A DNA stretch of 64,000 bases from Desulforamulus hydrothermalis Lam5 = DSM 18033. Lineage in GTDB: Bacteria > Bacillota > Desulfotomaculia > Desulfotomaculales > Desulfotomaculaceae. The translations under genes were made by a program, and so were the position numbers. Shown here one piece after another: positions 9,061-30,513 of the stretch. The stretch lies in NCBI RefSeq assembly GCF_000315365.1, contig NZ_CAOS01000001.1, forward strand, positions 125,456 through 189,455, written 5' to 3'. The notes below the pieces were generated by a model. The model was not told where the DNA came from and ran no database searches. It saw only the letters and a list, made by a program, of their open reading frames with translations. Within the stretch, counting starts at the first letter, position 1. The number at the start of each line of letters is the position of its first letter.

Positions 9061-9299
9061 TTATGGAAGATGATTACAGCAATCCGCAATACTTGCAAAT
9101 TTGGCGAACCGGCAGGGGTTTCTGCGTAAAACAGCCGGGAAGTCAGCTATATAATTAGCGGTCAAAAACCGGCTTAGTTTTTAAATTTTTCTGTCAGATA
9201 AAAAGGATTACCGATAATTTTGCAGAATTAAGCATTAAAATTAAAACTCCGAGTCCAATAACCTGTAGACACTGTTATAAATTCTTGTAACATTGTTAT

Positions 9300-9420
9300 G
9301 GTTTTTGGACCGACAGGGTATGTTGGGAAACCGGCATGCCTCCCGTTGCGGAAAGGAGATGATAGACGACAGGTAATGCCGAGCTTTGTTTCCTTTTCCG
9401 GGGATAAAGCCCGGTTTTTT
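9300..9420 (+). promoter_or_regulatory. Moco/Tuco-type riboswitch with terminator platform
   Basis: The leader of the tungstate-binding-protein gene contains GCCTCCCGTTGCGGAAAGG followed by AGATGA and later AATGCCGAGC, matching my recollection of the molybdenum-cofactor RNA motif. CGGCAT near 9332 pairs with ATGCCG near 9376, closing a stem-loop whose CCTCC pairs with GGAG. An intrinsic terminator follows at 9398-9420 (CCGGG/CCCGG then TTTTTT), which implies ligand-induced transcription termination. The gene it controls handles tungstate, so the tungsten-cofactor variant is plausible. Confidence 0.82.
9398..9420 (+). terminator. Terminator of the Moco/Tuco-type riboswitch
   Basis: CCGGG at 9398-9402 pairs with CCCGG at 9410-9414, followed by six T residues. 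It lies 118 bp before the TupA-like start codon and is the presumed expression platform. Confidence 0.8.
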
Positions 9421-10547: not shown

Positions 10548-10645
10548 TGGCGGGAGTGTGTGGGAATCGAACCCACCATGGACAGGAGCGCTGCCCAACG
10601 ACTGGTTTTGAAGACCAGGAGCACCACCAGGCACCATCCACTCCC
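10548..10645 (-). tRNA. selC: tRNA-Sec(TCA)
   Basis: Selenocysteine tRNA, about 95 nt plus an encoded CCA (10548-10550). The acceptor GGGAGTG pairs with CACTCCC. The anticodon arm CTGGT-CTTCAAA-ACCAG carries the anticodon TCA, which reads UGA. A long variable arm (GTTGGGCAGCGCTCCTGTCCA region) and T-arm GTGGGTTCGATTCCCAC follow. Its presence implies selenoprotein synthesis; selA, selB and selD are not in the window. Confidence 0.96.
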
Positions 10646-16834: not shown

Positions 16835-18007
16835 ATGATAAGTATCAGCAAATTGCTTTGTGGTACAGAAAACTTTGGCGATCACCTGCGCTATGCTCAT
16901 GGCGCCAAGGGGCAAGTACACGGTGCAGTGGCGGGTCATGGTCCGGTGGTAGTTTGGAATGCCACTCGGACTTGCAACCTGCGCTGCCGCCATTGTTATT
17001 CTGAATCTGACCATAAAAAATATGACGAGCTATCCACCCGGGAGGCCAAGCAGTTTATTGATGATCTGGCGGCCTTTCGGGTGCCGGTGCTGCTGCTTTC
17101 CGGAGGCGAACCCCTGTTGCGGCCGGATTTCTTTGAACTGGCCAGGTATGCCAGGCAGAAGGGCATTCGCATTACCGTTTCTACCAATGGCACCCTGATC
17201 AGTCCCGAGGTGGCGCGGCAGCTTAAAGAGGTCGGGGTTGGCTATGTGGGCATAAGTTTAGACGGCATCGGGGAAATTAATGACCGCTTTCGGGGGCGGG
17301 CGGGCGCCTATGAAGCTGCTTTGCAGGGTATCCGCAACTGCCTGGCCGTAGGCCAGCGGGTGGGCCTGCGTTTTACGGTCAACCGTCATAATTACCGGGA
17401 ATTAAACAATATTTTTGATCTGGTAGAAAAAGAAAACATTCCCAGAGTATGTTTTTACCACTTAGTTTATACCGGTCGCGGCAGTGAAATGGTTAAGGAG
17501 GATCTAACTCATGGGGAGAGCAGAGCTGCCCTTGATTTAATTATTGAACGCACCCTTGACTTGCACCGCCGGGGTTTTAATAAAGAAATCTTAACGGTTG
17601 ATAACCATGCTGATGCCGTCTATATTTATCTTAAATTGCTTCAGGATGACCCTGAACGAGCCCGGCAAGTTTACCGTTTGTTATCCTGCAATGGCGGTAA
17701 CCGGACCGGTATTGCTATAGGCGAGGTGGACTGGGAGGGCAATGTTCATGCAGACCAGTTTTCCCGCAATCACTGTTTTGGCAATGTGCGGCAAAGAAAA
17801 TTCAGTGATATTTGGACGGACCTCAGCCATCCCATCCTGGCCGGTTTGAAGAACCGCAAGCCTTTATTAAAGGGGCGCTGTGCCAGGTGCAAATGGTTGG
17901 ATTTATGCAACGGTAATTTCCGGGCCCGGGCAGAGGCGGTTTACGGCGATTTTTGGGCCGAAGATCCGGCTTGTTACCTAACGGATGAAGAAATAAGTCA
18001 CGCTTAA
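16835..18007 (+). CDS. Radical SAM protein NirJ1 / AhbC type (heme pathway)
   Basis: Radical SAM enzyme (390 aa) of the siroheme-dependent heme route, expected to remove acetate side chains from 12,18-didecarboxysiroheme to give Fe-coproporphyrin. The cluster motif is CNLRCRHC (residues 48-55, CX3CX2C), then LLLSGGEPLLRPD. The C-terminal region has further cysteines (CNGGN..., CARCKWLDLC) for auxiliary Fe-S clusters. Start ATG 16835 follows AAGTGGGAG, 92 bp after hemD. Assignment to AhbC rather than AhbD follows order and similarity to the NirJ1 subfamily. Confidence 0.85.
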   Translation: MISISKLLCGTENFGDHLRYAHGAKGQVHGAVAGHGPVVVWNATRTCNLRCRHCYSESDHKKYDELSTREAKQFIDDLAAFRVPVLLLSGGEPLLRPDFFELARYARQKGIRITVSTNGTLISPEVARQLKEVGVGYVGISLDGIGEINDRFRGRAGAYEAALQGIRNCLAVGQRVGLRFTVNRHNYRELNNIFDLVEKENIPRVCFYHLVYTGRGSEMVKEDLTHGESRAALDLIIERTLDLHRRGFNKEILTVDNHADAVYIYLKLLQDDPERARQVYRLLSCNGGNRTGIAIGEVDWEGNVHADQFSRNHCFGNVRQRKFSDIWTDLSHPILAGLKNRKPLLKGRCARCKWLDLCNGNFRARAEAVYGDFWAEDPACYLTDEEISHA

Positions 18008-18033
18008 ATCAAGCTAACGGGGGTGTTTTTACC

Positions 18034-19014
18034 TTGTCTGTTTTTCCTCATGTCAGGCACCGTCGCTTAAGGATGAACGAACAGGTCAGACGGTTGGTGC
18101 GGGAGAACCGCTTAACTGTAGATGATCTCATCTACCCGGTGTTTGCTACCTGTGGTCAGGGGGTGCGCCGGGCCTTTGACAGCATGCCGGGTGTTTATAA
18201 TCTTTCTGTGGATCTGCTGCTGGAAGAAGTAAAAAAAGTGCAGGAGCTGGGCATTCCCGGTGTGATTGTGTTTGGCGTGCCGGCAACCAAGGACGAGGTG
18301 GGGTCAGGCGCCTATGATCCCGACGGTGTTGTGCAGCAGGCGGTACGCGCCATTAAGCAGGCCTTTCCCAACCTGCTGGTGATAACCGATGTTTGCCTGT
18401 GCGAATATACCAGTCATGGTCACTGCGGCTTAATTAAAGGACAAAGGGTGGACAACGATACTACCTTGGCTTTGCTTGCCCAAACCGCCCTGTCGCATGT
18501 GCAGGCAGGGGCAGATATGGTGGCCCCGTCCGATATGATGGACGGGCGGGTGGCAGCTATCCGGGCCCGCTTGGATGCTGAGGGCTATTCAGATATTCCG
18601 ATCATGGCTTACTCGGCCAAATATGCTTCAGCTTACTACGGCCCCTTCCGGGAGGTGGCCGGTTCTGCCCCGCAGTTTGGTGACCGCAAAACCTATCAAA
18701 TGGACCCGGCTAACGGAGATGAAGCCCTGCGGGAAACCGCCCAGGACATTGCAGAAGGGGCGGATATTGTTATGGTGAAACCGGCACTGGCTTATATGGA
18801 TATAATTCGCCGTATTAAAGAGCAGACCGGCTATCCTGTAGCAGCTTATAATGTAAGCGGTGAGTACGCTATGGTGAAAGCAGCTGCCCAAAAGGGGTGG
18901 CTTGATGAACGGAGAATTGTCCTGGAGACATTGACCGGTCTCAAACGAGCCGGTGCAGATATTATCATAACTTATCATGCCCTGGAGGTTGCCCGCTGGT
19001 TAAAGGGGGTTTAA
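18034..19014 (+). CDS. hemB: Porphobilinogen synthase (delta-aminolevulinate dehydratase)
   Basis: Condenses two 5-aminolevulinates into porphobilinogen (326 aa). The Schiff-base lysines are in MAYSAKYASAYYGPFREVAGS and in VMVKPALAYMDI. The metal site DVCLCEYTSHGHCG is the cysteine-rich, zinc-type version. TTG start at 18034 with GGGGG upstream. It lies between the two radical SAM genes, 4 bp before nirJ2. Confidence 0.95.
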   Translation: MSVFPHVRHRRLRMNEQVRRLVRENRLTVDDLIYPVFATCGQGVRRAFDSMPGVYNLSVDLLLEEVKKVQELGIPGVIVFGVPATKDEVGSGAYDPDGVVQQAVRAIKQAFPNLLVITDVCLCEYTSHGHCGLIKGQRVDNDTTLALLAQTALSHVQAGADMVAPSDMMDGRVAAIRARLDAEGYSDIPIMAYSAKYASAYYGPFREVAGSAPQFGDRKTYQMDPANGDEALRETAQDIAEGADIVMVKPALAYMDIIRRIKEQTGYPVAAYNVSGEYAMVKAAAQKGWLDERRIVLETLTGLKRAGADIIITYHALEVARWLKGV

Positions 19015-19018
19015 CAAT

Positions 19019-20011
19019 TTGATTATTTCCTGGAATACTACCAATGCCTGCAATCTTTATTGCGCTCACTGCTACCGGGATGCCGGCATACGGGCGGAGG
19101 AAGAACTCAATACAGAACAAGGTAAAAAATTAATCAATGAAATTGCCGCTGCAGGCTTTAAGATTATGATTTTTAGCGGCGGGGAACCTTTGATGCGGCC
19201 GGATATATATGAACTGGTGGCTTACGCCAAGTCGCAGGGGCTGCGTCCGGTGCTTGGCAGCAACGGCACCCTGATCACTCTCGAAGCGGCGCAGCAGTTG
19301 AAAGAATGCGGGGCGGCCGGCATTGGGATCAGTTTAGACAGCGCCGACCCGGAAAAACATGACCGCTTTCGGGCGCAGGCAGGCTGCTGGCAGGCGGCGG
19401 TGGAGGGGATGCGCAATTGCCGCCGGGCCGGTCTGCCCTTTCAGGTTCATACCACGGTACTGGACTGGAATTATCACGAAGCGGAGGAATTAACCGACCT
19501 GGCAGTGCGTGAGGGGGCTGTGGCCCATCACTTTTTCTTCCTGGTACCTACCGGACGGGCGGTTAATATTGAAGAGGAATCCCTGCGGGCAGAACAGTAC
19601 GAGGGTTTGCTGCAGCGCATTATGGAAAAACAAAAGCAAGTAGACATTGAATTGAAGCCTACCTGTGCCCCTCAGTTTATGCGCATTGCCAGACAAATGG
19701 GGGTTGCGGTGCGTTTTCAGCGGGGCTGCCTGGCCGGTACCTCCTATTGCATTATCAGCCCTAAGGGGGATGTACAGCCCTGTGCCTATTTAAATATTCC
19801 ATTGGGTAATGTAAAAGAAACTTCCTTTGTGGATATCTGGCAGCACAGCCCTGTACTCAAGGAACTGCGCTCCCTTGAGTATAAAGGAGGCTGCGGTACC
19901 TGCGGCTACAAAAAAATTTGCGGCGGCTGCCGGGCCAGGGCTTATTTTTATCACGGAGATTATATGGCTGAGGAACCATGGTGCTTATACCACGGTCGAA
20001 AGGGGTATTAA
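19019..20011 (+). CDS. Radical SAM protein NirJ2 / AhbD type (heme synthase of the alternative pathway)
   Basis: Radical SAM enzyme (330 aa) expected to decarboxylate two propionates of Fe-coproporphyrin III to the vinyl groups of heme b. The motif CNLYCAHC sits very near the N-terminus (residues 11-18). A SPASM-like C-terminus carries C..CGTCGYKKICGGCRARA. TTG start after GGGGG; the short N-terminus leaves no better start. AhbD is inferred from gene order and from NirJ2-type features. Confidence 0.85.
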   Translation: MIISWNTTNACNLYCAHCYRDAGIRAEEELNTEQGKKLINEIAAAGFKIMIFSGGEPLMRPDIYELVAYAKSQGLRPVLGSNGTLITLEAAQQLKECGAAGIGISLDSADPEKHDRFRAQAGCWQAAVEGMRNCRRAGLPFQVHTTVLDWNYHEAEELTDLAVREGAVAHHFFFLVPTGRAVNIEEESLRAEQYEGLLQRIMEKQKQVDIELKPTCAPQFMRIARQMGVAVRFQRGCLAGTSYCIISPKGDVQPCAYLNIPLGNVKETSFVDIWQHSPVLKELRSLEYKGGCGTCGYKKICGGCRARAYFYHGDYMAEEPWCLYHGRKGY

Positions 20012-20476
20012 ATGCAGCTGGATCATCTGGACAGGCGACTTCTCAATCTGGTACAGACAGAATTCCCCATTTGCCCGCAGCCTTACCTGGCGTTGGCTGA
20101 AAAATTGGGGATTACTGAGCAGGAGGTTTTGCAACGCCTGGAACGGTTAATGCGGCAGGATGTGCTGCGACGCCTGGGAGGGGTTTTTGATTCCCGTAAA
20201 CTGGGGTACAAGGGTACCCTGTGTGCCATTAAGGTGCCGCCGGAACGTATTGACGAAGTTGCGGCCGTCATTAACAGTTATGTAGGAATTACCCATAATT
20301 ATTTGCGGGATCACGAATACAATATGTGGTTTACCATTTTGGCCCGGTCGTCAGCCAAGGTGGAGCAAATTCTTAGTGAAATCCGTGCCAAGACGGGTAT
20401 AGAAGAAATTATAAACCTACCGTCCCAGAGATTTTTTAAAGTGCTGGTAAAATTTGACGTTACTGATGAAGACTAA
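20012..20476 (+). CDS. ahbA: Siroheme decarboxylase subunit AhbA (Lrp/AsnC-like fold)
   Basis: A 154-aa protein with an AsnC-type N-terminal helix-turn-helix (LDHLDRRLLNLVQ...) and a ligand-binding domain with GVFDSRKLGYKGTLCAIKV and THNYLRDHEYNMWFTI. With AhbB it decarboxylates siroheme to 12,18-didecarboxysiroheme; the HTH fold is kept but the role is enzymatic. The ATG touches the preceding stop. It is 18 bp from ahbB, a homologue with the same layout. Confidence 0.88.
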   Translation: MQLDHLDRRLLNLVQTEFPICPQPYLALAEKLGITEQEVLQRLERLMRQDVLRRLGGVFDSRKLGYKGTLCAIKVPPERIDEVAAVINSYVGITHNYLRDHEYNMWFTILARSSAKVEQILSEIRAKTGIEEIINLPSQRFFKVLVKFDVTDED

Positions 20477-20493
20477 ATTAGGCGAGGGAGAAT

Positions 20494-20967
20494 ATGACCT
20501 TAAGTGAGCTGGATAAACGCATCATAATGGAATTGCAGGCGGGTTTGCCGCTGGTCAGCCGACCCTTTGAAGCATTGGCCAAAAGGCTGGGCATTACAGA
20601 AGAAGAATTTTTGGCCAGGGTTCATGCCATTCAACAAGCAGGCATTATGAGACGCATTGGAGCTGCCCTGCGGCATCACCGGGTAGGCTATACGGCTAAC
20701 GCCATGATTGTCTGGCAGATACCGGAGGAAAAAATAGCAGAAGTGGGGGAGCGCATGGCCCGGCTGCCTGAAGTAACCCACTGTTACCAGCGCGCAGCTT
20801 TACCCCAGTGGCCCTATAATTTTTATACAATGATTCATGGTCGCAGCCGGGAAGCCTGCCGGCAGATTGCCAAGAAGCTGGCTGATATAGCAGGCGTAGA
20901 TAACTACCGCCTTTTATATAGTGTTGCTGAACTGAAGAAAAGCAGTATGAAATATTTCATGGATTAG
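20494..20967 (+). CDS. ahbB: Siroheme decarboxylase subunit AhbB (Lrp/AsnC-like fold)
   Basis: A 157-aa paralogue of AhbA, with [31 protein letters not shown] at the N-terminus, then [25 protein letters not shown]. The conserved histidines ([13 protein letters not shown]) are those expected for siroheme binding in the AhbA/B pair. ATG follows GGCGAGGGAG. Confidence 0.88.
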
Positions 20968-20977
20968 GAGGATTTCC

Positions 20978-22276
20978 ATGGCTCCCAGTTATCAAAAATC
21001 CAACGAGTTGTTTGCCCAGGCTCAAATGGTGATTCCAGGCGGGGTCAACAGTCCGGTGCGGGCTTTCAAGTCAGTGGGCATGACCCCTCCCTTTATTGCC
21101 AGGGCTAACGGCTGCCGCCTGTGGGATGTAGACGGCAACGAGTATATTGATTATGTTTGCTCCTGGGGGCCCCTTATTTTGGGGCACCGTCACCCGGCTG
21201 TAATGCATGCGGTTCAGCGCTGTTTGGAAAGGGGCACCACCTACGGGGCTCCTACCGATTTAGAGCTAACCCTGGCCCAAATGGTAGTGGAAGCGTTACC
21301 TTCGGTGGAAATGGTGCGCATGGTCAATTCCGGTACGGAAGCCACCATGAGTGCCCTGCGTTTAGCCAGGGCATATACCAACCGCAGTAAAATTGTTAAA
21401 TTTGAAGGCTGTTATCATGGCCACCATGATTCCCTGTTAATTAAGGCCGGATCGGGAGCCCTAACCCACGGCGTGCCTACCAGCCCGGGTGTGCCCCTGG
21501 AACTTGCCGGGCATACTATCAATGCCCGCTATAATGATCTGGCCCTGCTGGAGAAAATTTTTGTTGAAGCAGGTTCTGAAATTGCAGCGGTAATTGTGGA
21601 ACCATTGGCCGGCAATATGGGCATTGTGCCGCCTGCCGAAGGATTCTTGCAGGGATTGCGTGATCTTTGTCATAAGTATGGTGCTTTGTTAATTTTTGAT
21701 GAAGTAATTACCGGCTTCCGTCTTGGATATGGCGGGGCCCAAACATATTATAACGTGCTGCCGGATTTAACCTGCCTGGGCAAAATCATTGGCGGCGGGT
21801 TGCCGGTTGGCGCTTACGGGGGTCGCCGGGAAATCATGCAAATGGTTTCACCCGCCGGTCCGGTTTACCAGGCCGGTACACTGTCCGGCAATCCGCTGGC
21901 TATGACAGCCGGTATTGCCACCCTGGAACAGTTGCAGCAGCCGGGGGTTTATGAGGAACTAAACCGTAAGTCTGGCTTGCTGGCCCAGGGTTTAAGCCAG
22001 GCCGCTCAGGCGGCCGGGGTGCCTGCCTGCCTTAACCGGGTAGAATCGCTGCAAACCTGTTTCTTTACCGGGCAGCCGGTGCGTGATTTTGCCGGCGCAT
22101 CCACTTCAGATACCAAGCGTTACGCCGTTTTCTTTAAATGCATGCTGGAACAAGGTATTTATTTAGCTCCTTCCCAGTTTGAGGCACTCTTTATTTCCAC
22201 CGCCCATACCGACAGCGATATTGAACGTACCGTAGAAGCAGCTTACCATGCATTTAAAGCGGCGTCTCAAATATAA
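20978..22276 (+). CDS. hemL: Glutamate-1-semialdehyde 2,1-aminomutase
   Basis: PLP enzyme (432 aa) that converts glutamate-1-semialdehyde to 5-aminolevulinate, the second step of the C5 pathway. The PLP lysine is in [16 protein letters not shown] (about residue 267). The N-terminal [15 protein letters not shown] and [16 protein letters not shown] are diagnostic. It is the last gene of the heme operon, with a terminator just downstream. ATG follows TTAGGAGGATTTCC. Confidence 0.96.
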
Positions 22277-23266: not shown

Positions 23267-23540
23267 TAAAATCACTCCTCGTGTGTTAAATTGGACTTGG
23301 GCTGGAGCCTAAGTTTTAACGTCTTTATCAATAACAGGTGTCTGTCCTAAAACGGTTAGTTAGATATTCTACACCGGGGTAAAATATTCCTTTGTTAGCC
23401 AGAATGTCAAACTTTGTATTTTTTTGTTTTGTGTTATTACAAAAAAATTAAATTCTTGCTAAAATAGCTAAAATAAATTGACTGATAATTTTATATAAGT
23501 ATAATTAAATTAACACCTGACAAATACGGGTTAACCCGGT

Positions 23541-23670
23541 TTGGAGGGTATGACAACGCATAGTGTTTCCCTGAGGAGAAAGGCCGGCGGCCTTGGACCA
23601 AGGGGTACGCCTTTTGGGGTGTACACTACCCGTCTCTGCCTTTCTCCGGCATGTGACGGGTTTTATTTTT
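23541..23670 (+). promoter_or_regulatory. Structured leader RNA (attenuator or riboswitch candidate) of the hydrogenase-maturation operon
   Basis: The leader can form a perfect 10-bp stem, GGAGAAAGGC (23575-23584) with GCCTTTCTCC (23638-23647). It encloses hairpin AAGGCC/GGCCTT and hairpin GTACGCC/GGTGTAC. The 3' arm overlaps an intrinsic terminator (ACCCGTC 23628-23634 with GACGGGT 23655-23661, then TTTATTTTT), so the two folds exclude each other. GGGTA..AGTGT at 23546-23566 can also pair with ACACTACCC at 23623-23631. It matches no riboswitch class I can recall. Confidence 0.7.
23628..23670 (+). terminator. Terminator within the hydrogenase-maturation leader
   Basis: ACCCGTC/GACGGGT (7 bp) and an inner TGCC/GGCA are followed by nine residues, mostly T. 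It ends just before the ribosome binding site of the TM1266-type gene, so read-through is needed for expression. Confidence 0.75.
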
Positions 23671-23683
23671 GGAGGTGGCTGCT

Positions 23684-23932
23684 TTGCATCGTCGTATCGG
23701 GGTGGTGGGCATTGTGATTGAAGATCGCAACAAAGCTCCGGAGATAAATAACATTCTGAGCCGGTACTCAGAAATTATTATCGGCCGCATGGGCATACCC
23801 CATAAAGAAAGGGGCCTTTCTGTTATTTCCCTCATCGTGGAAGGCACCAATGATGAAATCGGGGCCATGACAGGCAAGTTGGGCAATATCAAGGGAGTTC
23901 AGGTAAAATCTGCCCTCAGCACAAAATATTAG
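23684..23932 (+). CDS. TM1266-type iron-only hydrogenase system regulator
   Basis: Small ACT-like protein (82 aa) found beside [FeFe]-hydrogenase genes and presumed regulatory. It reads HRRIGVVGIVIEDRNKAPEIN..., then IIGRMGIPHKERGLSVISLIVEGTNDEIGAMTGKLGNIKGVQVKSA, the family pattern. The TTG at 23684 is chosen because GGAGGT at 23671 precedes it by 7 bp; the longer frame would place the ribosome binding site inside the gene. It heads the aspartase-hydF-hydE-hydG operon. Ligand and mode of action unknown. Confidence 0.85.
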   Translation: MHRRIGVVGIVIEDRNKAPEINNILSRYSEIIIGRMGIPHKERGLSVISLIVEGTNDEIGAMTGKLGNIKGVQVKSALSTKY

Positions 23933-23935
23933 GGG

Positions 23936-25381
23936 GTGAGCAAGCTGCAGTACCGCATTGAGCAAGATCTTATCGGCCCCAAAGAAATTCCGGCGGCAGC
24001 CTATTATGGTATTCATACGGCACGGGCAGCAGAAAACTTTAATGTATCAGGGCAAAGGGTGCATCCTGAACTTATCAAAGCAATGGCTGTGGTAAAACAG
24101 GCAGCTGCCGAAACCAACATAGCACTAGGCTTGTTGGAGCCCAACCTGGGCAGCGCTGTTTTTCAGGCGGCGGCAGAGGTGGCAGAAGGGAAACTGGCCG
24201 ATCAGTTTATTGTGGATGCCCTGCAAGGAGGAGCGGGTACTTCCACTAACATGAATGTTAACGAAGTAATTGCCAACCGGGCCATCGAAATTTTAGGTGG
24301 CAGGAAAGGCGATTATTCTCTGGTGCACCCGGTAAATCACGTTAACATGTCCCAGTCAACCAACGATGTATACCCTACCGCCCTGCGGATTGCCGCTATC
24401 CGTTTGCTGGCACGCCTCTCCCAGGCCTGTGCCAATTTGCAGGGGGCCCTGCAGGCAAAAGAGGCAGAATTTGCCGGGGTATTAAAGGTTGGCCGCACCC
24501 AGTTGCAGGATGCCGTGCCAATTACCCTGGGCCAGGAGTTTGCCGCCTGGGCAGAAGCCATTGCCCGGGATCGCTGGCGCTTATACAAGGTGGAAGAACG
24601 TTTGCGGCAAGTTAACCTGGGCGGCACAGCGGTAGGGACCGGGCTGAATGCCGAGCGCAAATACATCTACTCGGTGATTGAACGGCTCAGGGCCTTAACC
24701 GGACTGGGATTGGCCCGTAACGAAAATATGATTGACGGTACGCAAAATGCTGATGTTTTTGTAGAGGTGGCGGGACTGGTCAAGGCTAATGCTGCCAGCC
24801 TGGTTAAAATAGCCGGGGATTTGCGGCTCCTGGCCTCCGGTCCCCGGGCGGGCCTGGGAGAAATCAGACTGCCGGACCTGCAAGCCGGTTCCTCTATTAT
24901 GCCGGGAAAAGTAAACCCGGTATTGCCGGAAATGATTACCCAGGTGGCCTACCAGGCCATGGCTCAGGATTTGGCCATTACCCTGGCGGTACAGGCGGGG
25001 CAGTTGGAACTGAATGCTTTCCTGCCCCTGGTGGCTGCCAATCTGTTGCCGGCCCTGGAAACCCTCAGCAAGGCCATAAACCTGTTAGCGGAACGTTGTA
25101 TTAAAGGGATTCAAGCGGTACCTGAAAAATGTTTGGCCCACCTGCACAACAGTGTAGGCGTGATTACCGCCCTCATGCCCCTGGTGGGCTATGATACGGC
25201 TTCTGAACTGGCTAAAGCCGCTTTAAGAAGCGGTCGCCCGGTGAGGGATGTGATTTTGCAAGCGGGCTTATTTACAGAAGCTGAATTGGATCAACTGCTA
25301 AGACCGGAGGAAGTGACCCGGCCGGGGATGGCGGGCAAGCGCAAAGCCAAAAGCCAGTATAATCTGAAGGGGGTAACCTGA
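23936..25381 (+). CDS. aspA: Aspartate ammonia-lyase
   Basis: Converts L-aspartate to fumarate and ammonia (481 aa). The superfamily signature GSSIMPGKVNPV is at about residues 318-329; the N-terminus YRIEQDLIGPKEIPAAAYYGIHTARAAENF is aspartase-like rather than fumarase-like. GTG start at 23936 with AGGGGG upstream. It lies between the TM1266-type regulator and hydF, a recurring position in maturation clusters, where ammonia for the azadithiolate bridge is a possible but unproven purpose. Its stop overlaps the hydF start by one base. Confidence 0.87.
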   Translation: MSKLQYRIEQDLIGPKEIPAAAYYGIHTARAAENFNVSGQRVHPELIKAMAVVKQAAAETNIALGLLEPNLGSAVFQAAAEVAEGKLADQFIVDALQGGAGTSTNMNVNEVIANRAIEILGGRKGDYSLVHPVNHVNMSQSTNDVYPTALRIAAIRLLARLSQACANLQGALQAKEAEFAGVLKVGRTQLQDAVPITLGQEFAAWAEAIARDRWRLYKVEERLRQVNLGGTAVGTGLNAERKYIYSVIERLRALTGLGLARNENMIDGTQNADVFVEVAGLVKANAASLVKIAGDLRLLASGPRAGLGEIRLPDLQAGSSIMPGKVNPVLPEMITQVAYQAMAQDLAITLAVQAGQLELNAFLPLVAANLLPALETLSKAINLLAERCIKGIQAVPEKCLAHLHNSVGVITALMPLVGYDTASELAKAALRSGRPVRDVILQAGLFTEAELDQLLRPEEVTRPGMAGKRKAKSQYNLKGVT

Positions 25382-26610
25382 TGGACAGCACACCAAGAGG
25401 AAATCGGCTTCATATAGCTATCTTCGGGCGGCGCAACGCCGGTAAGTCCAGTTTGATAAATGCACTGACCAACCAGGATATTGCTGTTGTATCCCATGTG
25501 CCAGGTACCACCACTGACCCGGTGTACAAAGCCATGGAGATTTTGCCGGTGGGTCCGGTGGTAATTATTGACACTGCGGGCATTGATGATACCGGACAAC
25601 TGGGCGAACTTAGAGTACAGCGGTCTCTTGAAGTATTAAATAAAGCTGACCTGGTACTGCTGGTAATGGATGCCGGCGCCGGGCTAAGCGAATTTGAACA
25701 GGACATTGTATCCCGCTGCCAAACCAAAAAGCTGCCGGTAGTGGCGGTACTGAATAAAACAGACCAATATCCGGTAAATCAGCAGCAAGTTGATGAAATT
25801 AAAGAAAAACTGGCACTGGAACCGGTGGCGGTGAGCGCTCTTACCGGTACCGGTATCTCTGAATTGAAAATAGCAATAATCAAAGCCGCCCCCCCCGCTT
25901 GGGATGACCAGACAATTGTAGGTGACCTGCTGAATCCCGGGGACGTGGCTGTACTGGTTGTACCTATTGATCTGGCGGCGCCCAAGGGGCGGTTAATTTT
26001 GCCCCAGGTGCAAACCATCCGGGATATTTTGGATCACGATGCCATGGCCTATGTAGTAAAGGAAAGGGAATTAAAGGAGTGTATAGCATCTTTAAATAAA
26101 AAACCCAGGATTGTGATTACCGACTCCCAGGCTTTTCTCAAAGCAGATGCTGATACGCCGCCGGATGTCCTGTTAACTTCCTTTTCTATCCTGTTTGCCC
26201 GTTATAAAGGGGATTTAGAAACCCTGGTGGCAGGGGCAAAAGCTATTGAAAAATTAAAGCCGGGTGATAAAGTGCTGATAGCCGAGGCATGCACCCATCA
26301 CCGGATGGAAGACGATATCGGTACCGTCAAGATACCACGCTGGCTGCGCCAGATTGTGGGCGGTGATTTGGATTTTCATTGGTGCAGCGGGCACCGGTTC
26401 CCGGCGGATCTGTCGGAATATAAGCTGGTGGTGCACTGCGGCTCCTGTATGATTAACCGGCGGGAAATGCTGTCCCGCATTATGCAGGTGCAACAGGCGG
26501 GTGTTCCTATTGTTAATTACGGGGTGTGCATAGCCTATGTGCAAGGCATTCTCAGACGGGCCCTGTCCCCCTTCCCGGTGTTACAAGAGATGCTGGATGA
26601 TTTAGATTAA
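25381..26610 (+). CDS. hydF: [FeFe]-hydrogenase maturation GTPase HydF
   Basis: Scaffold on which the H-cluster 2Fe subcluster is built (409 aa). N-terminal GTPase: Walker A GRRNAGKSSL (about residues 16-25), switch region GTTTDPV, DTAGIDD and NKTD. The C-terminal [4Fe-4S] site is formed by EACTHHR and HCGSC. It is coupled to the aspartase upstream and is 24 bp from hydE. Confidence 0.95.
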   Translation: MDSTPRGNRLHIAIFGRRNAGKSSLINALTNQDIAVVSHVPGTTTDPVYKAMEILPVGPVVIIDTAGIDDTGQLGELRVQRSLEVLNKADLVLLVMDAGAGLSEFEQDIVSRCQTKKLPVVAVLNKTDQYPVNQQQVDEIKEKLALEPVAVSALTGTGISELKIAIIKAAPPAWDDQTIVGDLLNPGDVAVLVVPIDLAAPKGRLILPQVQTIRDILDHDAMAYVVKERELKECIASLNKKPRIVITDSQAFLKADADTPPDVLLTSFSILFARYKGDLETLVAGAKAIEKLKPGDKVLIAEACTHHRMEDDIGTVKIPRWLRQIVGGDLDFHWCSGHRFPADLSEYKLVVHCGSCMINRREMLSRIMQVQQAGVPIVNYGVCIAYVQGILRRALSPFPVLQEMLDDLD

Positions 26611-26634
26611 TTTGCCCACAAAGGGGGATTGCCT

Positions 26635-27720
26635 GTGCGGCAAGATTTTATCAAAGCATTTAACAAGGCAGCCGATGGCAGCCAACTAACCAGAGCAGAT
26701 CTTACAGTGCTGCTGCAAGCCCAAGCGGGAGAAGAGGAAGCAAAATTATTTGAACTGGCCGATGCGGTGCGGCAGAAAAATTTTGGTAATGCAGTACACC
26801 TGCGGGGCATTATTGAGTTTTCTAATTTCTGCCGTAACGACTGCCACTACTGCGGATTGCGGCGCAGCAACCGGGCCATTCGCCGTTACCGCATACCGCT
26901 GCCGGAAATTGTGGCTACCGCCAAATATGCTGCTGATTTAGGTTACGGTACCATCGTTTTACAGGCCGGGGAGGATCCCGCCTATTCAGGTGAACAATTG
27001 GCTGAGATGATCCGCCAAGTCAAGGAAGCAGGTGACTTTGCTGTCACCGTTTGTGTGGGCGAACGCAGCCGGCGTGATTATGAACTCATGAGAGAAGCAG
27101 GTGCGGATCGCTATTTGCTAAAACACGAAACAGCGGATGCCGCGTTGTTTGCCGGCCTGCGGCCGGGCACCTCGCTGGCAGAACGGATCAAGCGGCTGAA
27201 ATGGCTGCGCGAATTGGGTTACCAGGTTGGCTCCGGCAATATGGTAGGGCTGCCGGGACAGACGGTGGAAACTTTGGCGGATGACCTCCTGCTCTTAAAG
27301 GAATTGGATGTGGAAATGGCCGGCATCGGACCTTTTATTCCCCATCACCAGACACCGTTAAAGGACAGTCCGGCCGGAGATTTAAAGCAAACCCTAAAAA
27401 CCCTGGCAGTGGCAAGAATCCTCCTGCCGCAAACCCACCTGCCGGCCACCACCGCCATCGGCACCTTGCACCCGGCAGGACGCCGGATGGCCCTGGCCTG
27501 CGGTGCCAATGTAATCATGCCTAATTTGTCACCGGCCGGCTATCGCCAATTGTATCAAATTTATCCGGAAAAGGCCGGGAGTAAAGAAAACCCGGAGGAA
27601 TCTCACGAAAAGATAGCCAGGCTGGTAAAAGAAGCGGGGCGGTATATTAGTACGGGTCGGGGCGACAGCCCCAAGGAAATATTTAAAAAAAGTCCGGACA
27701 CTTGGGCCGGAGAAAGGTAA
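26635..27720 (+). CDS. hydE: [FeFe]-hydrogenase maturation radical SAM protein HydE
   Basis: Radical SAM enzyme (361 aa) that acts on the iron synthon made by HydG. Cluster motif FCRNDCHYCGL (CX3CX2C, about residues 64-71) with the downstream VLQAGEDP block. GTG at 26635 is preferred to the TTG at 26629 because GGGGG at 26622-26626 then has proper spacing. It is immediately followed by hydG. Confidence 0.93.
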   Translation: MRQDFIKAFNKAADGSQLTRADLTVLLQAQAGEEEAKLFELADAVRQKNFGNAVHLRGIIEFSNFCRNDCHYCGLRRSNRAIRRYRIPLPEIVATAKYAADLGYGTIVLQAGEDPAYSGEQLAEMIRQVKEAGDFAVTVCVGERSRRDYELMREAGADRYLLKHETADAALFAGLRPGTSLAERIKRLKWLRELGYQVGSGNMVGLPGQTVETLADDLLLLKELDVEMAGIGPFIPHHQTPLKDSPAGDLKQTLKTLAVARILLPQTHLPATTAIGTLHPAGRRMALACGANVIMPNLSPAGYRQLYQIYPEKAGSKENPEESHEKIARLVKEAGRYISTGRGDSPKEIFKKSPDTWAGER

Positions 27721-27730
27721 GGTGAGCCTG

Positions 27731-29197
27731 ATGGCAATTAACAAGGCGGAGATTTATCATAACCAGTGGGAACCGGCAGATTTTATTAAGGAAGAAGAAA
27801 TCAACCGTATGCTGGAGGAAGCTAAACAAGCTCCGGCGGCCTGCGTCAGAGAGATAATTGAAAAGGCACGGCAGGCCCGGGGGCTGACGCCGGAAGAAGT
27901 AGCCGTTTTGCTGCAAAATGAAGATGAAGAACTGCTGTCTTTAATGTATGAAGTGGCTAGGGAAATAAAGCTGAAGATTTACGGCAAACGTCTGGTCTTG
28001 TTTGCCCCGCTGTATATCAGTGATCACTGTGTCAATAACTGTGTTTATTGCGGCTACCGCCGGGATAACAAGTTTAAACGCCGCAAATTAACCCAGGAGG
28101 AAGTGGCAGAAGAAGTAAAAATTTTGGAATCAATGGGACACAAGAGGTTGGCCTTGGAAGCCGGCGAACACCCGGGAGAATGTCCGATTGAGTATGTGCT
28201 GGAATGCTTAAACACAATTTACAGTATTAAATTTGACAATGGCAGCATCCGCCGCTGCAACGTCAATATTGCCGCCACCACTATTGAAGATTATAAGAAA
28301 CTGAAAGATGCCGGCATTGGTACTTATATCTTATTCCAGGAAACCTATCACCGGGCCACTTATCAAAAGATGCACCCCAGCGGCCCCAAGGCTGATTATG
28401 ATTGGCATACCACCGCCCACGACCGGGCTATGATGGCCGGTATTGATGATGTTGGCTTTGGTGTACTGTTTGGCCTGTACGATTACAAATTTGAAGTTTT
28501 GGGTCTGTTGATGCATGCTTTGCATTTGGAAGAACGTTTCGGTGTAGGTCCGCATACCATTTCGGTGCCGCGCTTACGGCCGGCCCTGGGAGTGGATTAC
28601 AACAGCTTCCCCTATTTAGTAAATGACGACCAGTTTATGAAACTGGTAGCTATTATTCGCCTGGCAGTTCCCTATACCGGCATGATTATTTCCACCCGGG
28701 AACGGCCCGCTTATCGTGATATGTTGTTGAACTACGGCATATCACAAATTTCTGCCGGCTCCTGTACCGGCGTAGGCGGCTACAAACGGGAACTGCAGCG
28801 TCAGCAATGCCTGGCTGAGGGTGGCAGCCGGTGCGGCGGCGAACAAGATGCCCCGCAGTTCAGCGTGGATGACCACCGTACACCGGATGAGGTATTGCGC
28901 AGCGTCTGCCAATCCGGTTGGCTGCCCAGCTACTGCACAGCCTGCTACCGTAAAGGGCGCACCGGCGACAGGTTCATGGCCCTGGCCAAAAGCGGTGAAA
29001 TTCAAAACGTTTGCCAGCCCAATGCTATCCTTACCTTTAAAGAATACCTGCTTGACTATGCTTCGCCTGAGACCAGGGCAGTGGGAGAAGAAACCATTCG
29101 CCGGCACCTGGCCGAAATCAGCAACCCGCAAATCAGAAAAATTACAGAAGAACGTCTTAAACAAATTGAAGCCGGGGAAAGAGACCTGTATTTCTAG
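27731..29197 (+). CDS. hydG: [FeFe]-hydrogenase maturation radical SAM protein HydG
   Basis: Cleaves tyrosine to give the CO and cyanide ligands of the H-cluster (488 aa). The SAM cluster motif is CVNNCVYCGYRR (about residue 98). The C-terminal auxiliary-cluster motif CTACYRKGRTGDRFM is present, which separates HydG from ThiH. ATG at 27731 has AAGGTGAG at good spacing; a GTG at 27722 is the alternative. It ends the operon; a duplicated terminator and repeat element copy B follow. Confidence 0.95.
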   Translation: MAINKAEIYHNQWEPADFIKEEEINRMLEEAKQAPAACVREIIEKARQARGLTPEEVAVLLQNEDEELLSLMYEVAREIKLKIYGKRLVLFAPLYISDHCVNNCVYCGYRRDNKFKRRKLTQEEVAEEVKILESMGHKRLALEAGEHPGECPIEYVLECLNTIYSIKFDNGSIRRCNVNIAATTIEDYKKLKDAGIGTYILFQETYHRATYQKMHPSGPKADYDWHTTAHDRAMMAGIDDVGFGVLFGLYDYKFEVLGLLMHALHLEERFGVGPHTISVPRLRPALGVDYNSFPYLVNDDQFMKLVAIIRLAVPYTGMIISTRERPAYRDMLLNYGISQISAGSCTGVGGYKRELQRQQCLAEGGSRCGGEQDAPQFSVDDHRTPDEVLRSVCQSGWLPSYCTACYRKGRTGDRFMALAKSGEIQNVCQPNAILTFKEYLLDYASPETRAVGEETIRRHLAEISNPQIRKITEERLKQIEAGERDLYF

Positions 29198-29241: not shown

Positions 29242-29505
29242 CAGCGTGTCAACAAATATTAGCGGTGGTTTATGATCCCCTTTGGCTCCGGTCTACGCAC
29301 CGACAGCACTATGATTCGCTACGGTGGCCATTGGGGTCGCCTCAAACGGGCCCTCCTGGCCCGGTTCGGCTGGCGCCCACGTCCTGTGGGCGCCACCCCA
29401 ATGGCTCCTTTCGCTCATCAAGTGCTGTAACCGGTGCTTCGACAAGTCGCCGACAGGGGATCATAAATCACCTTACTTTGTTTTACAACCTTTGTCTACA
29501 GTCTG
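29242..29505 (+). mobile_element. Terminal-inverted-repeat element, copy B (264 bp)
   Basis: The element starts CAGCGTGTCAACAAA and ends TTTGTCTACAGTCTG, which are imperfect inverted repeats. Inner inverted repeats are GGTGGTTTATGATCCCC and GGGGATCATAAATCACC. A GC-rich hairpin (TGGCGCCCACG..GTGGGCGCCA) lies in the middle. The ORFs across it are not conserved in the other copies, so it is non-coding, like a MITE. It lies exactly between two identical 25-bp terminator hairpins, as if these were a target duplication. No transposase is in the window. Confidence 0.78.
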
Positions 29506-30339: not shown

Positions 30340-30495
30340 CAGGCAACTTGTTTTTTTAATGGCGTTGCCTGGAAAAAAATAGCTTAATCCCGGGATGGGA
30401 GCGGAGGAACCATTTATGGGGTGAATCCTGTGCTTGTGTGCAGGTAGGGTTTTAACCTTTCGACCCGAACCCGTCAGCTAACTTCGTAAGCTATA
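30340..30495 (+). promoter_or_regulatory. c-di-AMP riboswitch (ydaO/yuaA type)
   Basis: The conserved blocks of the ydaO class are all visible: GGGAGCGGAGGAACCA, TGGGGTGAATCC, AGGGTTTTAACCTTTCGACCCGAACCCGTCAGCTAAC and a closing GTAAGCT. AGCTTA near 30381 pairs with TAAGCT at 30487-30492 as P1. An extra AGGCAAC/GTTGCCT hairpin lies at 30340-30369. No intrinsic terminator separates P1 from the gene; the ribosome binding site lies 9 bp after P1, which suggests translational control. Members of this class normally switch genes off when c-di-AMP is high. Confidence 0.92.
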
Positions 30496-30513
30496 AAGAA
30501 AGGGAGGATGCAA

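What the first reader, a model, noticed from the sequence alone, without database searches (positions are those of the whole stretch)
23541..23670. Uncatalogued structured leader controlling the [FeFe]-hydrogenase maturation operon
Seen: a perfect 10-bp long-range stem (23575-23584 with 23638-23647) that holds two inner hairpins and cannot coexist with a terminator directly before the first ribosome binding site. A second pairing (23546-23566 with 23623-23631) would form a pseudoknot with the long stem. This is the design of a riboswitch or protein-controlled attenuator, but it matches none of the classes I know. The ligand might relate to H-cluster assembly (iron, SAM, tyrosine) or be bound by the TM1266-type protein encoded next.
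Basis: partly seen in the sequence, partly recalled or inferred. Interest (0 to 1): 0.8.

Follow-up and report, generated by a model that had tools for sequence, protein, structure and literature searches.

The report
New attenuator RNA for hydrogenase maturation
The leader in front of this bacterium's hydrogenase-assembly genes is a real, uncatalogued RNA switch, found in the same place in dozens of anaerobic bacteria, which probably shuts off transcription through a terminator when a still unknown signal (perhaps the small protein encoded next to it) holds it folded.

Summary
The RNA begins near 23511, outside the given coordinates, and consists of two tandem, pseudo-symmetric stem-loops (D1 23512-23551, D2 23569-23605), then an intrinsic terminator (23628-23670).

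No Rfam family matches (E up to 10). Covariance models found relatives in many families of the phylum, almost always directly upstream of TM1266, hydE, hydG or aspA/hydF. On 65 leaders the structure covaries strongly (score 0.476; shuffled 0.197 +- 0.010; slid at most 0.162). The antiterminator co-varies with each leader's own terminator (z = -8.5, 0/20,000 permutations).

Best reading: a transcription attenuator, OFF when D1/D2 are stabilised. TM1266 protein as effector (PyrR-like) is slightly favoured over a direct metabolite or ion riboswitch. Reasons: the RNA was seen only in genomes that carry TM1266, and the RNA-TM1266 pair also heads ABC-importer operons without nearby hyd genes. Neither the effector nor the direction of control was tested. 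No description of it was found in the literature held.

The parts
23478..23505 (+). sigma-70-like promoter TTGACT / 16 nt / TATAAT; puts the RNA start at about 23511-23513, the first bases of D1
   Evidence: sequence read directly; start site inferred
23512..23551 (+). domain D1: closing stem P1 (ACCT 23515-23518 with GGGT 23546-23549), tandem purine mismatch GA/GA (23519-23520, 23544-23545), stem P2 (CAAAT 23521-23525 with GTTTG 23539-23543), apical CGGG/CCCG (23527-23530, 23535-23538)
   Evidence: covariation on 26 and 65 leaders; same fold is the window's MFE; R2 hit 23511-23608, 84.5 bits
23555..23567 (+). small linker hairpin AACGC-ATA-GTGTT; variable, short or absent in other families
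   Evidence: genus alignment and window MFE
23569..23605 (+). domain D2, same architecture as D1: CCCT 23569-23572 with GGGG 23602-23605, mismatch GA/AA, GG 23575-23576 with CC 23598-23599, apical AAGGCC/GGCCTT (about 23580-23593)
   Evidence: covariation incl. GG/CC, GA/UC, GC/GC, GU/AC; window MFE
23575..23584 (+). antiterminator, 5' strand GGAGAAAGGC (inside D2)
   Evidence: pairs with 23638-23647; co-varies with own terminator in 69 leaders, z = -8.5
23605..23624 (+). genus-level hairpin GTACGCC/GGTGTAC between D2 and terminator
   Evidence: genus alignment; not conserved outside close relatives
23638..23647 (+). antiterminator, 3' strand GCCTTTCTCC (inside the terminator hairpin)
23628..23670 (+). 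intrinsic terminator: hairpin 23628-23661 (about -18 kcal/mol) and T run 23661-23670
   Evidence: 94 of 123 leaders have such a hairpin
23671..23675 (+). Shine-Dalgarno GGAGG of the first gene
   Evidence: sequence
23684..23932 (+). TM1266-like protein (PF21699); start likely TTG 23684 (ORF caller gives 23669)
   Evidence: Pfam E 1.8e-33, weak NikR_C similarity
23936..25381 (+). aspA, aspartate ammonia-lyase
   Evidence: ORF and homology; role of ammonia-lyases in DTMA synthesis: PMC11736057
25381..26610 (+). hydF
   Evidence: ORF; conserved operon
26629..27720 (+). hydE
   Evidence: ORF; conserved operon
27722..29197 (+). hydG
   Evidence: TIGR03955 663 bits

Best explanation
The leader is a transcription attenuator with three exclusive helices. 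D1 and D2 are the sensing stem-loops; each is pseudo-two-fold symmetric (two copies of a CCU-GA / RA-GGG internal loop in opposite orientation around a short helix). If the nascent D2 is not stabilised, its 5' strand pairs with the terminator's 5' arm (antiterminator) and RNA polymerase reads into TM1266-aspA-hydF-hydE-hydG. If an effector stabilises D1/D2, the antiterminator cannot form, the terminator does, and the operon is OFF (feedback repression). Shown: the RNA, its structure, the antiterminator/terminator alternative, the gene association. Inferred: the direction of control. Inferred and uncertain: the effector, most likely the TM1266-type protein acting as a PyrR-like autoregulatory RNA-binding protein, probably with a small-molecule signal linked to H-cluster assembly.
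For: Covariation 0.476 vs shuffled 0.197 +- 0.010, slid at most 0.162. Antiterminator matches its own terminator better than swapped ones, z -8.5; the D1 strand shows little such effect (own -8.49 vs permuted -8.03 sd 0.27). Predicted folds of the growing transcript: antiterminator at 23647, terminator at 23661. RNA before TM1266/hyd genes in 33 of 35 places of the phylum search, one other at a contig end, and within 450 nt upstream of TM1266 in 65 of 80 named loci, all on the coding strand. For TM1266: it is usually the first gene; all 33 RNA-positive genomes of the phylum sample carry TM1266 and 16 of 16 genomes checked, including cases with the RNA away from TM1266; no hit at 14 hydG loci from TM1266-less genomes; in Sedimentibacter/Tissierellia loci and L133 the RNA-TM1266 pair heads an ABC importer operon with no hyd genes among the hits; extra copies just after TM1266 in three loci; two-fold symmetric target suits a homo-oligomer.
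Against: No RNA binding by TM1266-type proteins is known to me or was found. Co-occurrence is partly expected because TM1266 is common in hyd operons, and genomes are not independent. The 14 hydG loci carried only 1.5 kb flanks and may miss the operon leader. In the g26 genomes and in the second G005/G002 copies the RNA stands before other genes without adjacent TM1266. Internal-loop conservation could equally be a ligand pocket.
Confidence: 0.48

Rival explanations
1. A true riboswitch: D1 and D2 bind a small molecule or metal ion directly (two sites, possibly cooperative), with the same OFF expression platform. Candidates are an H-cluster pathway metabolite, Fe(II), or the substrate of the co-regulated SsuABC-like importer.
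For: Highly conserved internal-loop nucleotides in two tandem similar domains; regulation of both biosynthesis genes and an importer; RNA away from TM1266 in several genomes; tandem aptamers are common in riboswitches (PMC9481103, PMC7266159).
Against: The smallest versions are about 32 nt with two near-identical internal loops and no junction, small for a metabolite aptamer; strict co-occurrence with TM1266 is not required by this model.
Confidence: 0.38
2. Same RNA, opposite sign: the effector stabilises the read-through form and switches the operon ON, as EutV/ANTAR or LicT do.
For: Antiterminator and D2 share one strand, so either form could be the bound one; ANTAR and RAT systems use stem-loops near terminators (PMC3369936, retrieved).
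Against: The conserved symmetric fold is D1/D2, which excludes the antiterminator; the antiterminator sequence itself drifts while keeping complementarity, as an expression platform does.
Confidence: 0.11
3. No RNA function: conserved DNA operator or chance conservation upstream of a conserved operon.
For: Inverted-repeat character; position close to the promoter.
Against: Compensatory changes with G-U pairs, including almost invariant U-G pairs (64 of 65 and 64 of 64 leaders), do not fit a DNA dyad; co-variation with the terminator; all 70 hits on one strand.
Confidence: 0.02

Closest known systems
PyrR-controlled attenuators of the pyr operon (Bacillus)
   Same: Attenuators with an anti-antiterminator stem-loop that excludes an antiterminator; regulator gene at the head of the operon; several attenuators per operon, as in loci with a copy before and after TM1266 (comparison from general knowledge).
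   Different: TM1266 is not a PyrR homologue (PF21699, NikR_C-like); the RNA sequence and its symmetric tandem form differ; binding untested here.
LicT/BglG RAT hairpins and ANTAR two-hairpin elements
   Same: Short stem-loops with two internal loops (RAT) or tandem stem-loops (ANTAR) next to a terminator, bound by dimeric proteins (general knowledge; PMC3369936).
   Different: Those proteins promote read-through; the first gene here encodes a TM1266-like protein; conserved nucleotides differ; the proposed sign is opposite.
Tandem-domain riboswitches (glycine; Moco/Wco doublets)
   Same: Two similar sensing domains in series sharing one expression platform (PMC7266159, PMC9481103); Wco riboswitches occur near hydrogenase genes (PMC9481103).
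   Different: No Rfam match to any of these; the window's own Moco riboswitch at 9235-9374 is unrelated in sequence; ligand unknown.
   Same: Terminator-type leaders with G-rich segments gave weak false hits.
   Different: No tRNA-binding or T-box core in this leader; those hits disappeared with models R2/R3.

Membership tests
Any Rfam 15 family | covariance-model score above the gathering cut-off | tested here: not met
   No hit at gathering for the leader in the window or in 18 homologous loci; best chance hit E 2.5 at permissive setting.
Intrinsic-terminator attenuator (kind of mechanism) | terminator hairpin with U run before the first gene | tested here: met
   23628-23670; 94 of 123 leaders.
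Intrinsic-terminator attenuator (kind of mechanism) | conserved alternative pairing excluding the terminator | tested here: met
   z -8.5 in the swap test.
Riboswitch | direct ligand binding by RNA without protein | not testable with these tools
   needs in-line probing or calorimetry.
Riboswitch | conserved, covarying structure with conserved unpaired nucleotides | tested here: met
PyrR-type protein-controlled attenuator | regulator encoded in the controlled operon | tested here: met
   TM1266 is usually the first gene; that it is a regulator is only an annotation.
PyrR-type protein-controlled attenuator | regulator is a PyrR homologue | tested here: not met
   PF21699 TM1266-like.
PyrR-type protein-controlled attenuator | protein binds the anti-antiterminator RNA | not testable with these tools
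   co-occurrence only.
T-box leader | T-box covariance-model match | tested here: not met
   no Rfam hit.

The most novel reading that the evidence does not exclude
TM1266-type proteins (NikR-C-like fold, function unknown) are a new family of RNA-binding attenuation proteins, and the tandem two-fold symmetric stem-loops are their dedicated target; together they form a portable regulatory module that links H-cluster assembly to uptake of a precursor by an ABC importer.
Probability: 0.42. Interest if true: 0.86.

Novelty: new variant of a known kind. Interest (0 to 1): 0.76.

Why it matters
How anaerobes control synthesis of the H-cluster, the most active hydrogen-making cofactor, is largely unknown. 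A widespread dedicated RNA switch before hydEFG gives a direct handle on that regulation, points to a function for the orphan protein TM1266, and ties a co-regulated ABC importer to the pathway, which may help identify a missing precursor. It also gives a ready-made covariance signature for annotating H-cluster operons.

Tried and rejected
A GGGU/ACCC multi-stem junction closing on the terminator arm, my early idea, fails for the same reason. Register of the D2 closing stem: C-U/A-G pairing as first modelled (R2) versus the register with U-G next to the mismatch; the second covaries better and mirrors D1. Model R1, which included the terminator, gave false hits (T-boxes L031, L037, L043; Moco L063; pyr leader L044; noise L033, L036, L057, L061, L062, L064-L067); these contexts did not recur with R2. 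The class search only repeated the order. Ligand by genes: the importer is SsuA-like by family, but the substrate cannot be named from sequence. Literature: no paper on an RNA leader of hyd maturation genes found; motif surveys PMC11109978, PMC8632094, PMC2864571 and PMC6429828 do not mention hydrogenase. Weinberg 2017 (gkx699) is not held, so its full motif list could not be read; its motifs are covered only as far as they are in Rfam. Supplementary motif lists were not searchable.

Full report
1. What is in the window. The window lies in a genome of the Desulforamulus genus: the nearest relative, G001, has a 119,324-base contig that matches the named record of Desulforamulus putei DSM 12395 (inference from contig length and sequence). 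The operon is TM1266-like protein, aspA, hydF, hydE, hydG (23684-29197). A sigma-70-like promoter (TTGACT 23478, TATAAT 23500-23505) places the RNA start at about 23511 (inferred).

2. Conservation inside the genus. All eight same-genus genomes searched have the leader before TM1266, and one (G004) has a second copy before an unlinked hydG. No Rfam family matches it at E up to 10, nor its homologues at gathering thresholds.

3. Homologues outside. A first covariance model (R1) found copies in other families of the order and in the phylum sample, with some false hits. A second model, R2, was restricted to the sensing core without the terminator. In 398 phylum genomes it gave 35 places at E <= 0.01; 33 lie before TM1266 or hyd genes, one lies at a contig end (L086), one is a second copy in G005 before an unknown gene. 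Gene context was not used in the search, so this is independent evidence. Hits run down to E about 0.006 without an unrelated gene appearing.

4. Named organisms. Eighty TM1266 loci from named genomes were searched with the third model, R3: 70 hits at E <= 1, all on the coding strand of TM1266; 65 of 80 loci have a hit ending within 450 nt upstream of it. At E <= 0.01 there are 51 hits in 48 loci. Carriers include Desulfofundulus, Desulfoscipio, Moorella mulderi, Syntrophomonas zehnderi, Thermosyntropha, Caloramator, Fervidicella and Tepidanaerobacter; weaker hits, resting on position as well as score, include Caldicoprobacter, Sedimentibacter and Clostridium sp. CX1.

5. Structure. The core is two tandem stem-loops of the same plan. 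D1: N-CCU, GA, a short helix, GGG-loop-CCUG, the helix's other strand, RA, GGG-N. D2: (C)CCU, G(A/C), a 2-4 bp helix, AGGG-loop-CCUG, other strand, AA, GGGG. Each is pseudo-two-fold symmetric: the mismatch CCU-GA/RA-GGG appears twice, facing each way. Some leaders have one domain only (f14 leaders; Sedimentibacter, 32 nt: TCTAAGCTTAAGGATTTTTCTAAGAGCAAGGA). On 65 leaders 87.1% of cells pair, 255 cells change on both sides (shuffled 91 +- 8), score 0.476 against 0.197 +- 0.010 shuffled and at most 0.162 slid. Caveats: I derived the structure from these sequences by eye and the alignment was fitted to a related model, which favours it; shuffles ignore relatedness. The size of the effect, the slid controls and the independent gene context make chance implausible.

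6. Switching. The 10-bp stem is the D2 5' strand paired with the terminator's 5' arm and loop. In 69 non-redundant leaders with a nearby terminator this duplex is stronger with the leader's own terminator (-12.34 kcal/mol) than with swapped ones (-9.54, sd of permuted means 0.33; 0 of 20,000; z -8.5) or with shuffled arms (-8.65, 0 of 200). The D1 strand shows little such effect (-8.49 versus -8.03, sd 0.27). Examples: GGAGAAAG/CTTTCTCC here, GCGAGAAG/CTTTTCGC in f14, GCGAAGAAGGG/CCCTTTTTTCGC in L128. In folding of growing transcripts the antiterminator is best at 23647 and the terminator at 23661. The D2 fold and the antiterminator use the same strand, so stabilising D2 favours termination. 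That the operon is then OFF is an inference.

7. Effector. Two models remain. For TM1266: position as first gene; presence in all 33 RNA-positive genomes of the phylum sample (207 of 398 genomes overall have TM1266) and in 16 of 16 others checked (overlapping set); no hit at the hydG loci of 14 genomes lacking TM1266, although those loci have short flanks; and, most telling, RNA-TM1266-ABC importer operons without hyd genes among the hits in Sedimentibacter, Tissierellia and G393. Loci L158, L152 and L203 carry a copy before and another just after TM1266, which recalls the multiple attenuators of the pyr operon. For a riboswitch: conserved loop nucleotides, and copies far from TM1266. A rough estimate: 14 of 80 TM1266-negative genomes have hydG, so about one in seven hydG genomes may lack TM1266; 33 of 33 would then have a chance of about 1%, before allowing for shared ancestry. 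This leans to TM1266 but does not decide.

8. The importer. In g26 genomes the RNA precedes an SsuABC-like transporter (TIGR01728 above cut-off). In L192 (Anaerovorax MAG) the RNA precedes permease-ATPase-binding protein-TM1266-hydE-hydF, with a binding protein 67% identical to the g26 one. So the importer is tied to H-cluster maturation in two lineages. A more distant NitT/TauT-type importer follows TM1266 in Sedimentibacter. The substrate is unknown; a precursor of the cofactor is my guess.

9. Known or new. No paper found describes this element, but Weinberg 2017 and supplementary motif lists could not be read. As a kind of mechanism, attenuation is well known; the RNA class, its symmetric tandem design and its link to H-cluster genes appear new.

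Noticed in passing
L192:2291-4965; L050:1588-4359; L051: The RNA precedes an SsuABC-like importer, alone in g26 genomes and in one operon with TM1266-hydE-hydF in an Anaerovorax MAG; a candidate importer of an H-cluster precursor.
   Followed up: partly
L161, L166, L159, L147, L133 (also L153, L157, L177, L189, L190, L197): Single-domain RNA, TM1266, then a binding protein, permease and ATPase of the NitT/TauT type; no hyd genes among the hits in the five loci examined in full.
   Followed up: partly
L041:2235-2964 (minus), L042:2621-3345: Second, diverged copy of the RNA in two Desulforamulus genomes before a 183-aa protein with no Pfam or NCBIfam match.
   Followed up: partly
G000:C1:149148, C12:58553, C3:429623: The window's genome has three TM1266-family proteins; the other two are diverged and lie elsewhere.
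   Followed up: no
window 29290-29444 (minus): TwoAYGGAY RNA (RF01731, 58.9 bits), an orphan motif, on the opposite strand just downstream of hydG.
   Followed up: no
window 9235-9374 and 30371-30507: Moco/tungsten-cofactor riboswitch and c-di-AMP riboswitch, both clear Rfam hits.
   Followed up: no
window 10552-10645 (minus): Selenocysteine tRNA gene (RF01852).
   Followed up: no
window 16835-22276: Cluster that looks like the siroheme-dependent heme pathway: two radical-SAM proteins, hemB, two Lrp-like AhbA/B-type proteins and hemL (by reading the ORFs; not searched).
   Followed up: no
G072:C1:943748-945310, G043:C1:3508693-3510210: HydG in two g26 genomes matches its model in two pieces within one open frame of 510-525 aa, suggesting an insertion near model position 354.
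   Followed up: no
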